From Brucella tritici (GTDB lineage: Bacteria > Pseudomonadota > Alphaproteobacteria > Rhizobiales > Rhizobiaceae), in assembly GCF_902825325.1 (NCBI RefSeq), contig NZ_CADEAR010000009.1, positions 1-64,000 on the forward strand: DNA of 64,000 bases. Reading direction: 5' to 3'. The notes below the pieces were generated by a model. That model searched no databases. It was not told where the DNA came from and saw nothing but the letters and a program-made list of their open reading frames with translations. This document shows, piece by piece, positions 24,640-30,338 of this stretch. Each line of letters begins with the position of its first letter. Position 1 is the stretch's first letter. A program made the position numbers and the translations under genes.

Positions 24640-24653
24640 ACACTCCACAAACG

Positions 24654-24770
24654 AAAACACCCGTCGCGGGAGGAGGCGACGGGTGTTTTATGGGGAAGAC
24701 CGGACTTGGGAGGAGGATATCCGGTCTTGAATCACCGAGGGAATGGGAGGAGGAGAAAACACCCCGGTGA
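24654..24770 (-). ncRNA. Three tandem cuckoo-type (CcsR-like) sRNA hairpins
   Basis: Three hairpins in a row on the minus strand each expose an exact CCTCCTCCC. Hairpin 1: TCACCG/CGGTGA arms at 24732-24737 and 24765-24770, extended by GGG/CCC. Hairpin 2: a perfect 9-bp stem, AAGACCGGA (24696-24704) with TCCGGTCTT (24720-24728). Hairpin 3: a perfect 14-bp stem, AAAACACCCGTCGC (24654-24667) with GCGACGGGTGTTTT (24676-24689), which doubles as a terminator. CCUCCUCCC loops in tandem hairpins behind a DUF1127 gene define the cuckoo/CcsR RNAs first studied in Rhodobacter, which are processed from the DUF1127 mRNA. The loop is complementary to Shine-Dalgarno-like purine runs. Confidence 0.82.
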
Positions 24771-24821
24771 TATTGGGAAAACTGTAGGACCGCGCGGTTA
24801 TAGAGATTCGCGATCCTTGAA

Positions 24822-24837
24822 GAAGGCCGATGCCTTC
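24822..24837 (-). other. Small hairpin between DUF1127 gene and sRNA array
   Basis: GAAGGC (24822-24827) pairs with GCCTTC (24832-24837) around CGAT, twelve bases after the DUF1127 stop. It may mark the end of the coding part or a processing point separating mRNA from the cuckoo-type RNAs. Confidence 0.45.
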
Positions 24838-24848
24838 CGAAGGTGCTA

Positions 24849-24995
24849 TTAGCGAGCAGCGGCCTTGCGTGCGACGAACGGGATTTCCGAAGGCAGGATG
24901 CCAAGGTCGTTCAGTTCACGTGGGCTCAGGCGGCTCAGTTCGTTTACGGTGTTACGGTAACGGCGCCAGTTGTTGTACGAGCGGATCAGGTTCAT
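24849..24995 (-). CDS. DUF1127 small arginine-rich protein
   Basis: A 48-residue protein. The DUF1127 (YjiS-like) core occupies residues 5-36: YNNWRRYRNTVNELSRLSPR then ELNDLGI. It is basic, with an Arg-rich first helix. AGGTGAG lies a few bases before the ATG. DUF1127 proteins of alphaproteobacteria bind RNA and affect sRNA maturation and phosphate or carbon metabolism. CcaF1 of Rhodobacter, the best-known case, is co-transcribed with the CcsR RNAs, exactly as the array at 24654-24770 follows this gene. It is intact and in the family's usual size range. Confidence 0.9.
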   Translation of the reverse strand: MNLIRSYNNWRRYRNTVNELSRLSPRELNDLGILPSEIPFVARKAAAR

Positions 24996-25494
24996 TTCTC
25001 TCACCTAGTAAAATCTTATCTCTTTGTTGCAAACAGCATATAGGCTCGAAGCATTTCGAATTGGAGAGACAGATTTGCATAGCTGCAATGCGTTAAAGCT
25101 TGTCAGTTGCACGGCTTCTGCGCAGCTTGGTCATCATGCGATCACAATCATCTGTCCAAGTGGGGAAATCGCCAGAATTCAGTTGCTTGGGCGGCTAACT
25201 GGTTAAAACTTCTTTAAAAATTTGCCGGTCGGAAAAATCCTCCACAAAATGTGGTGGAGAGCGGTACGGCCAACGGTTTTGGTTACCGGTTAAATGTACG
25301 GTCTCGTCTATGCTGCAATATGCTTGTATAATAGAGTATAAATCTGAACCTCCTGTCAGCTTTAGATTTTGTCGCAAAAGTCCGGGATATAGTCGGTTAG
25401 AGACAACAATTCCACATGACTTGCGCGCCGGATTGGGTTAAGGGAGTTTCGTCGGGTGTCGGGACGCCATATCATGTGACGTTCTTACACTGTC
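24996..25494. other. Intergenic stretch between DUF1127 gene and glycine riboswitch
   Basis: About 500 bases hold two divergent promoters but no gene. For the plus-strand gcv transcript a good -10, TATAAT, occurs at 25327-25332; its -35 is weak. For the minus-strand DUF1127 gene no classical promoter is clear. Short open frames here have no domain or ribosome site. Confidence 0.5.
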
Positions 25495-25670
25495 TGTCTG
25501 CGGGAGAGCGCCAACTGGTCGCCGAAGGGGAAATCGCCCGAAATCTCTCAGGTACAAGGAACCGCAGACGGGTAAGACAACTCTGGAAAGTCGGGGGAAA
25601 CCCTGCGCCGAAGGTGTAAGTGTAGCTTTCAGCTATGCGAGTCTCTCAGGCCTGAGACAGAGGGGCACGA
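25495..25670 (+). ncRNA. Tandem glycine riboswitch upstream of gcvT
   Basis: Two glycine aptamers lie back to back. Aptamer 1 (about 25498-25575) has GGGAGAG, GCCGAAGGGG and ATCTCTCAGGTACAAGGAACC. Aptamer 2 (about 25579-25668) has the conserved GCGCCGAAGGTGTAAG and GTCTCTCAGGCCTGAGACAG, followed by AGGGG. The CGCCGAAGG and CTCTCAGG cores are diagnostic. It ends about 45 bases before gcvT and would turn on the cleavage operon when glycine is abundant. Exact aptamer limits need covariance-model alignment. Confidence 0.93.
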
Positions 25671-30225: not shown

Positions 30226-30338
30226 AAAAAAAGAGCCGGACTGGGAAGTCCGGCTAAGTTATGAAGGTGCCACATTGGGCAAACCTCCAGAGGGGAACAC
30301 TTACCGCGCGCAATGGGAGGAGGCACAGCGGTAAGTGA
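30226..30338 (-). ncRNA. Free-standing cuckoo-type sRNA (single CCTCCTCCC hairpin)
   Basis: On the minus strand, a perfect 10-bp stem, CACTTACCGC with GCGGTAAGTG (30328-30337 and 30298-30307), exposes a 20-base loop containing CCTCCTCCC. Some 40 bases on, AGCCGGACT/AGTCCGGCT (30234-30255, loop of four) with seven T residues forms a clear terminator. Upstream, TTGAAG (30373-30368) and CATATC (30350-30345), 17 bases apart, resemble an RpoH-type promoter and would start transcription right at the first hairpin. No gene precedes it, unlike the tandem array at 24654-24770. Predicted length is about 112 bases. Confidence 0.7.

What the first reader, a model, noticed from the sequence alone, without database searches (positions are those of the whole stretch)
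24650..24995. DUF1127 gene followed by three tandem CCTCCTCCC hairpins: a CcsR/cuckoo RNA locus
Directly seen: a 48-residue DUF1127 protein and, directly downstream on the same strand, three separate stem-loops, each with an exact CCTCCTCCC in the loop; the last is also a terminator. Known: in Rhodobacter sphaeroides the DUF1127 gene ccaF1 is co-transcribed with CcsR1-4, sRNAs defined by CCUCCUCCC loops, induced by stress sigma factors. Inference: this is the homologous system, with three copies here.
Basis: partly seen in the sequence, partly recalled or inferred. Interest (0 to 1): 0.78.

Follow-up and report, generated by a model that had tools for sequence, protein, structure and literature searches.

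The report
Small-protein gene with sRNA tail
A tiny arginine-rich protein gene is followed on the same strand by a known three-hairpin regulatory RNA (the alpha-r14/NfeR1 family) that can mask ribosome-binding sites, and the two probably share one promoter switched on by a LysR-type regulator.

Summary
On the minus strand a 48-aa DUF1127 gene is followed by three stem-loops, each with CCTCCTCCC. Rfam names the RNA: ar14 (RF02344, 86.2 bits, cut-off 58.8), the NfeR1/"cuckoo" family; the CcsR1 model scores 17.8 (cut-off 65.3). The genome is of the Brucella/Ochrobactrum group and has five ar14 loci: two follow DUF1127, three stand alone.

All five carry an upstream box that fits the published VtlR/LsrB box. 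In relatives' DUF1127 promoters a -10 starts exactly 32 nt after the box in 55 of the 56 where one was found, of 60 with box. The box lies before the ORF where DUF1127 is present (14 of 18 far-box loci) and just before the sRNA where it is absent (8 of 8 near-box loci). In 35 of 59 relatives ar14 starts within 15 nt of the stop codon, leaving no room for its own promoter.

Best reading: one LysR-activated transcription unit, giving DUF1127 and, from its 3' end, an ar14 sRNA that masks Shine-Dalgarno sites of solute-binding-protein mRNAs. A new member of a known kind (CIN1/cuckoo). Stress-sigma induction is not supported.

The parts
25076..25092 (-). LysR-type (VtlR/LsrB-like) box CGCATTGCAGCTATGCA
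   Evidence: fits published GCAT-N3-TG-N3-T on the other strand (PMC7486931, passage). Binding not tested.
25061..25066 (-). putative -35, CTCCAA
   Evidence: Position conserved as CTnCAA in 52 distinct aligned promoters of relatives. The generic sigma-70 scan listed no promoter.
25038..25043 (-). putative -10, CTATAT, 17 nt after the -35 and 32 nt after the box
24849..24995 (-). DUF1127 gene, 48 aa and stop codon
   Evidence: PF06568, 57.4 bits, cut-off 23.3
24776..24848 (-). spacer of 73 nt with two predicted stem-loops lacking the motif
   Evidence: similar spacers in nearest relatives
24652..24775 (-). ar14 sRNA (NfeR1/cuckoo family)
   Evidence: RF02344, 86.2 bits, cut-off 58.8
24731..24771 (-). 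hairpin 1, motif at 24745-24753
24696..24728 (-). hairpin 2, motif at 24708-24716
24654..24689 (-). hairpin 3, motif at 24668-24676, terminator-like
   Evidence: not listed by the terminator scan

Best explanation
The locus is one transcription unit. A LysR-type activator of the LsrB/VtlR kind binds the box at 25076-25092 and drives a housekeeping-type promoter. The transcript codes for the DUF1127 protein and ends in an ar14 (NfeR1-type) sRNA, released by processing (RNase E does this in Rhodobacter; inferred here) or acting as part of the mRNA. Its C-rich loops pair with Shine-Dalgarno sequences of the GGGAGGAG type, above all of mRNAs for solute-binding proteins, and block translation. The same unit without the ORF, with the box just in front of ar14, is the NfeR1-type standalone version. 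Shown here: anatomy, RNA family, covariation, box position with and without the ORF, linkage in relatives, solute-binding genes among complementary start sites. Inferred: regulator binding, co-transcription, processing, silencing.
For: ar14 over cut-off; five copies in the genome. 59 of 80 DUF1127 loci have ar14 behind them; in 35 of 59 it starts 15 nt or less after the stop codon and in 0 of 59 is there a box between ORF start and ar14, against 50 of 59 with a box before the ORF. Strict box: 10 sites in the genome, 5 of them at the 5 ar14 loci; controls 0 and 2. Near box: 8 loci without DUF1127, 0 with; far box: 14 with, 4 without; no box: 4 with, 5 without (Fisher p 0.0003; leaving out the five own loci p 0.006). 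Covariation: 11 of 33 pairs change on both sides (shuffle mean 5.8, 1 of 500 reaches 11). Targets: 7 of 14 ORFs behind GGGAGGAG are solute-binding proteins, 0 of 16 for the control GAAGGAGA (p 0.0017). Literature: LsrB activates NfeR1, whose three motifs silence mRNAs (PMC10746234, PMC7143759, passages); VtlR activates DUF1127 genes in Brucella and atu1667 in Agrobacterium (PMC12595884, PMC7486931, passages).
Against: No transcript data. In the window itself the gap is 73 nt, room enough for a promoter. The box also stands before DUF1127 genes without ar14 (10 of 21 such loci), so it is not tied to the sRNA. 9 of 59 linked loci lack the box as written. In NfeR1 the LsrB site is written TGCA-N6-GCAT at about -72 to -60 (PMC10746234), farther out than the box here would be (about -61 to -45 if the -10 starts at -12). 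The -10-like hexamers of some standalone copies are weak. Exact motifs erode in near relatives. The target test has one control pattern, and GGGAGGAG also fits AbcR and 16S rRNA, so strong start sites of abundant proteins could explain it. The mRNA of the box-bearing 52-aa gene on C17 has no ar14.
Confidence: 0.68

Rival explanations
1. ar14 has its own promoter in the 73-nt spacer or inside the DUF1127 ORF and is only a neighbour of the gene.
For: NfeR1 of S. meliloti has its own sigma-70 promoter (PMC7143759, PMC10746234, passages); three standalone copies exist in this genome; a CTATAA lies 50 nt before the first motif.
Against: CTATAA is present in the spacer of 1 of 16 near relatives examined. 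0 of 59 linked loci have the box between ORF start and ar14, and 35 of 59 have 15 nt or less between stop codon and ar14. The generic scan lists no promoter.
Confidence: 0.2
2. CcsR-like system under stress sigma factors (RpoH).
For: Same layout; CcaF1/CcsR is driven by an RpoHI/RpoHII promoter in Rhodobacter (PMC10253847, passages); S. meliloti AbcR2 is RpoH1-dependent (PMC8844928, passages). From recall, alphaproteobacterial RpoH -10 elements can look like CTATAT, so the -10 does not decide.
Against: CcsR1 model 17.8 bits, cut-off 65.3; conserved LysR box at fixed spacing; -35 is CTnCAA, CTCCAA here.
Confidence: 0.07
3. The hairpins are mainly a terminator and stability tail of the DUF1127 mRNA, without action in trans.
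For: Hairpin 3 is the strongest; motifs are eroded in Bartonella and some other relatives that keep hairpins.
Against: In 21 aligned sequences TCCTCCCA of hairpin 1 is invariant while stems covary; the family silences mRNAs in S. meliloti (PMC10746234, passages); tandem ar14 copies occur behind one gene.
Confidence: 0.05

Closest known systems
ar14 / NfeR1 (Smr14C2), Rfam RF02344
   Same: Three hairpins with CCUCCUCCC loops and variable stems; several copies per genome; LsrB-type box upstream (PMC7143759, PMC10746234, passages)
   Different: Here a DUF1127 ORF lies between promoter and sRNA; box form and distance are not those written for NfeR1; NtrC site not examined
CIN1 locus / ccaF1-CcsR1-4 of Rhodobacter sphaeroides
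   Same: DUF1127 gene followed by CCUCCUCCC hairpins (PMC10253847, passages)
   Different: ar14, not CcsR, by model; 48 aa instead of 71; LysR box instead of a described RpoH promoter; one three-hairpin unit instead of four sRNAs
VtlR regulon of Brucella (AbcR2 and three DUF1127 proteins)
   Same: Box of the same form before DUF1127 genes and before one of two AbcR copies
   Different: In the passages read ar14 in the DUF1127 3' region is not mentioned

Membership tests
ar14 (RF02344) | Covariance-model score over the gathering cut-off | tested here: met
   86.2 against 58.8 bits, positions 1-123 of 123
ar14 (RF02344) | Three hairpins with the anti-SD motif unpaired | tested here: met
   in hairpin 3 one of nine bases is paired
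ar14 (RF02344) | Stems vary but keep pairing | tested here: met
   11 of 33 pairs with both-side changes, 95.6% of cells paired, 21 sequences
ar14 (RF02344) | Expressed as an sRNA of about 115-120 nt | not testable with these tools
   Needs northern blot or RNA-seq
CcsR (RF02791) | Covariance-model score over the cut-off | tested here: not met
   17.8 against 65.3 bits
CcsR (RF02791) | Cluster of four homologous sRNAs | tested here: not met
   Three hairpins forming one ar14 match
CcsR (RF02791) | RpoHI/RpoHII promoter | tested here: inconclusive
   LysR box and CTCCAA-N17-CTATAT found; no RpoH model was run
CIN1 / cuckoo locus | Short DUF1127 gene followed by CcsR-like CCUCCUCCC hairpins on the same strand | tested here: met
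   The paper that defined it is not held; definition from PMC10253847, passage
CIN1 / cuckoo locus | Match to the published thermodynamic matcher | not tested
   Matcher not available
CcaF1-type RNA-binding DUF1127 protein | DUF1127 domain | tested here: met
CcaF1-type RNA-binding DUF1127 protein | Binds RNA and aids sRNA maturation | not testable with these tools
   Literature is split between RNA binding and protein binding (PMC12501420, passages)
LsrB/VtlR regulon | Binding-box sequence upstream | tested here: met
LsrB/VtlR regulon | Binding by and dependence on the regulator | not testable with these tools
   Needs EMSA and mutant expression

The most novel reading that the evidence does not exclude
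DUF1127-ar14 and NfeR1 are one unit with and without an ORF, and part of what is ascribed to VtlR/LsrB-controlled DUF1127 small proteins (for example sugar-use phenotypes) is really carried by the ar14 sRNA in their 3' ends, acting next to AbcR on the same solute-binding-protein mRNAs.
Probability: 0.3. Interest if true: 0.65.

Novelty: new member of a known kind. Interest (0 to 1): 0.42.

Why it matters
It ties three separately studied things to one architecture: NfeR1 of rhizobia (an LsrB-activated sRNA), the DUF1127 proteins under VtlR, and the CcsR/CIN1 layout of Rhodobacter. If the sRNA rides on the DUF1127 mRNA, mutants and overexpression constructs of these small proteins may have changed the sRNA too. 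That is directly testable and bears on the open dispute whether DUF1127 acts through RNA or through proteins.

Tried and rejected
CcsR membership: rejected on model score. Weak Rfam matches STnc310 and rli32: far below gathering. A promoter in the spacer: CTATAA occurs in 1 of 16 near relatives. The generic scan found no promoter and two terminator-like sites on the other strand; not used. The short box GCAT-N3-TG-N3-T was judged too unspecific for the genome, so a longer form was searched; that form misses the AbcR copy on C3 and the DUF1127 gene on C5, which fit only the short form. Of the other five strict-box sites one precedes a 52-aa ORF without a Pfam family (best E 0.057); the other four were looked at only for Rfam matches, the motif and printed sequence and may be chance.

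Of 21 sites 19 were printed by the script; the other two have the same matched letters as a third and were not translated; 14 had ORFs of 80 aa or more. For the control 30 of 34 sites were given as loci and 16 had such ORFs; 4 of these 16 have no Pfam match. The Fisher test ran before the last control proteins were annotated; the counts used were borne out. For one search, 20 of 59 linked ar14 sequences plus the window were aligned. For one search, the 30 loci are the best-scoring ones handed out, not all its matches. Structure prediction of DUF1127 was not run.

Full report
What is there. On the minus strand a 48-residue DUF1127 protein (24995-24849, PF06568) is followed by three hairpins (24771-24654) that carry CCTCCTCCC. 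The motif occurs four times in the window against 0.38 expected. The stretch 24860-24640 folds at -84.1 kcal/mol, z -7.14. Rfam gives ar14, RF02344, 86.2 bits (cut-off 58.8), for 24652-24775. The CcsR1 model gives 17.8 bits against 65.3.

Where it lies. So the genome (4.76 Mb, 115 contigs) belongs to the Brucella/Ochrobactrum group; the species was not determined. On the other side lie a glycine riboswitch (25491-25574) and a gcvT-type gene; 16 of the 20 loci keep the riboswitch.

The family here and beyond. Five ar14 loci are over the cut-off in this genome, with seven DUF1127 matches, one of them marginal. Two ar14 loci (C9, the window, and C12) lie behind DUF1127; three (two on C4, one on C5) do not. 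In the family 60 of 61 genomes have a match at E 0.001, 56 of 61 over the cut-off; in the order 103 of 297 and 55 of 297. Of 80 named DUF1127 loci 59 have ar14 over the cut-off behind the gene (19, 18, 6 and 16 of 20). The 21 misses include the three Bartonella loci, nine Neorhizobium/Rhizobium-type loci and several Mesorhizobium-type ones. Two Nitratireductor loci (L114, L117) have three ar14 matches in a row, one Aurantimonas locus (L074) four, and four Mesorhizobium loci (L070, L087, L089, L120) two.

Conservation. In 21 aligned ar14 sequences 95.6% of cells pair, 11 of 33 pairs change on both sides (shuffle mean 5.8; 1 of 500 reaches 11), the covariation score is 0.227 against 0.148 (0 of 500), and slid versions pair at most 47.8%. 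Weaker: further pair types, 30 against 26.9, reached by 16 of 500. Against the simple form of the finding, exact nine-base motifs erode: of the 16 nearest loci (L043-L058) one (L044) keeps three exact copies, and six have one or none beyond it exact, namely L043, L050, L056, L057 and L058 with one each (that is five loci with a single exact copy). In one search TCCTCCCA of hairpin 1 is invariant in 21 of 21; the loop of hairpin 3 is changed in L049, L050 and L056.

Promoter. A box [TC]GCA-N9-TGC[AG] lies between 140 and 85 nt before the DUF1127 start in 60 of 80 loci, with 0.23 expected from mononucleotide shuffles (the loci are related, so these are not 60 independent cases). A -10-like hexamer was found by pattern in 56 of the 60 and starts exactly 32 nt after the box in 55; CTnCAA precedes it by 17 nt. 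In the window: box 25076-25092, CTCCAA 25061-25066, CTATAT 25038-25043. The box fits the VtlR box GCAT-N3-TG-N3-T (PMC7486931, passages) and resembles CAATGCAGCCATGCA (PMC12595884, passages). NfeR1 of S. meliloti is activated by LsrB at a promoter CTTAGAC-N17-CTATAT; its site is written TGCA-N6-GCAT at -72 to -60 (PMC10746234, passages), which differs in form and distance from the box here.

One unit with and without ORF. The strict box TGCAT-N2-CTG-N3-TGC has 10 sites in the genome, five of them at the five ar14 loci; controls give 0 (reversed) and 2 (altered). In 35 ar14 loci (30 handed out, 5 own) a box 60-90 nt before the first motif goes with no DUF1127 (8 of 8), a farther box mostly with DUF1127 (14 of 18), and 9 have no box (4 with DUF1127, 5 without). 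Fisher p is 0.0003, and 0.006 without the five own loci that suggested the idea. At position +32 after the box the standalone copies have hexamers from good (CTATAT, CTATTT) to poor (GTAAAT, TTAATT). In the 59 linked loci 50 have a box before the ORF and none between ORF start and ar14; of the 21 DUF1127 loci without ar14 10 have the box too. In 35 of 59 linked loci ar14 begins 15 nt or less after the stop codon, in 20 more than 40 nt. I infer that ar14 is made from the DUF1127 transcript. In the window the gap is 73 nt, so the inference there rests on relatives.

Targets. GGGAGGAG-N4-9-ATG has 21 sites in the genome, the reversed pattern 1. Of 14 with an ORF of 80 aa or more, 7 are solute-binding proteins (Peripla_BP_6 twice, SBP_bac_1 twice, SBP_bac_3, Peripla_BP_4, DctP) and one an ABC ATPase. 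For GAAGGAGA it is 0 of 16; p 0.0017 for 7 of 14 against 0 of 16. This fits the transport targets described for NfeR1 (PMC7143759, PMC10746234, passages), but strong start sites of abundant proteins, or AbcR targeting, could give the same picture.

AbcR and other box genes. The genome has two ar15 loci: C3 with a box of the published form, and the one in the window (30228-30336) without one in the 600 nt examined. This parallels VtlR control of AbcR2 but not AbcR1 in B. abortus (PMC7486931, passage). The DUF1127 gene on C5 has the short published form on its other strand.

What is known and what is not. ar14, its motifs, and the DUF1127/CIN1 layout are in print (PMC7143759, PMC3927594, PMC10746234, PMC10253847; passages). 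The paper that defined CIN1 and the main CcaF1 paper are not held. That VtlR-controlled DUF1127 genes carry ar14 in their 3' region was not seen in the passages read of PMC12595884, PMC7486931 and PMC9751625. A search for DUF1127 with CCUCCUCCC found 0 papers; one for two or more of cuckoo RNA, CIN1, DUF1127, LsrB, VtlR listed 10, of which passages of 8 were read and PMC10659215 and PMC9824665 seen in the listing only. This is no proof of absence, since most subscription papers are missing. Whether the window gene is the ortholog of BAB2_0512 or BAB1_0914 was not tested.

Function of the protein. DUF1127 is reported to bind RNA in Rhodobacter and to act through PhoR in Agrobacterium (PMC12501420, passages); another DUF1127 gene in S. 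meliloti is controlled by attenuation at an upstream ORF (PMC12218461, passages). Nothing here decides how this protein acts.

Noticed in passing
30228-30336 (minus strand): ar15 (AbcR) sRNA with one CCTCCTCCC; unlike the second AbcR copy of the genome (C3) it has no VtlR-like box in the stretch examined.
   Followed up: partly
25491-25574 (plus strand): Glycine riboswitch before a gcvT-type gene, divergent from the DUF1127 unit and kept in 16 of the 20 loci.
   Followed up: no
L060 2676-2788, L061 2631-2743, L062 2609-2720: In two Phyllobacterium and one Paramesorhizobium locus an ar15/AbcR match lies a few hundred nt before DUF1127-ar14 on the same strand.
   Followed up: no
L031, L040, L087, L089: A second DUF1127 frame stands in tandem before the first one, which may explain missing or distant boxes there.
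   Followed up: no
L114, L117, L074: Three or four ar14 units in a row behind one DUF1127 gene, so the number of hairpins grows by duplication of the unit.
   Followed up: no
L137 1262-1420 (minus strand): A 52-aa ORF behind a strict VtlR-like box, with no Pfam family at E 0.05 or better; a possible further small protein of the regulon.
   Followed up: partly
L083, L084, L090: Bartonella loci keep the box and, in L083, three predicted hairpins, but have no exact CCTCCTCCC.
   Followed up: partly
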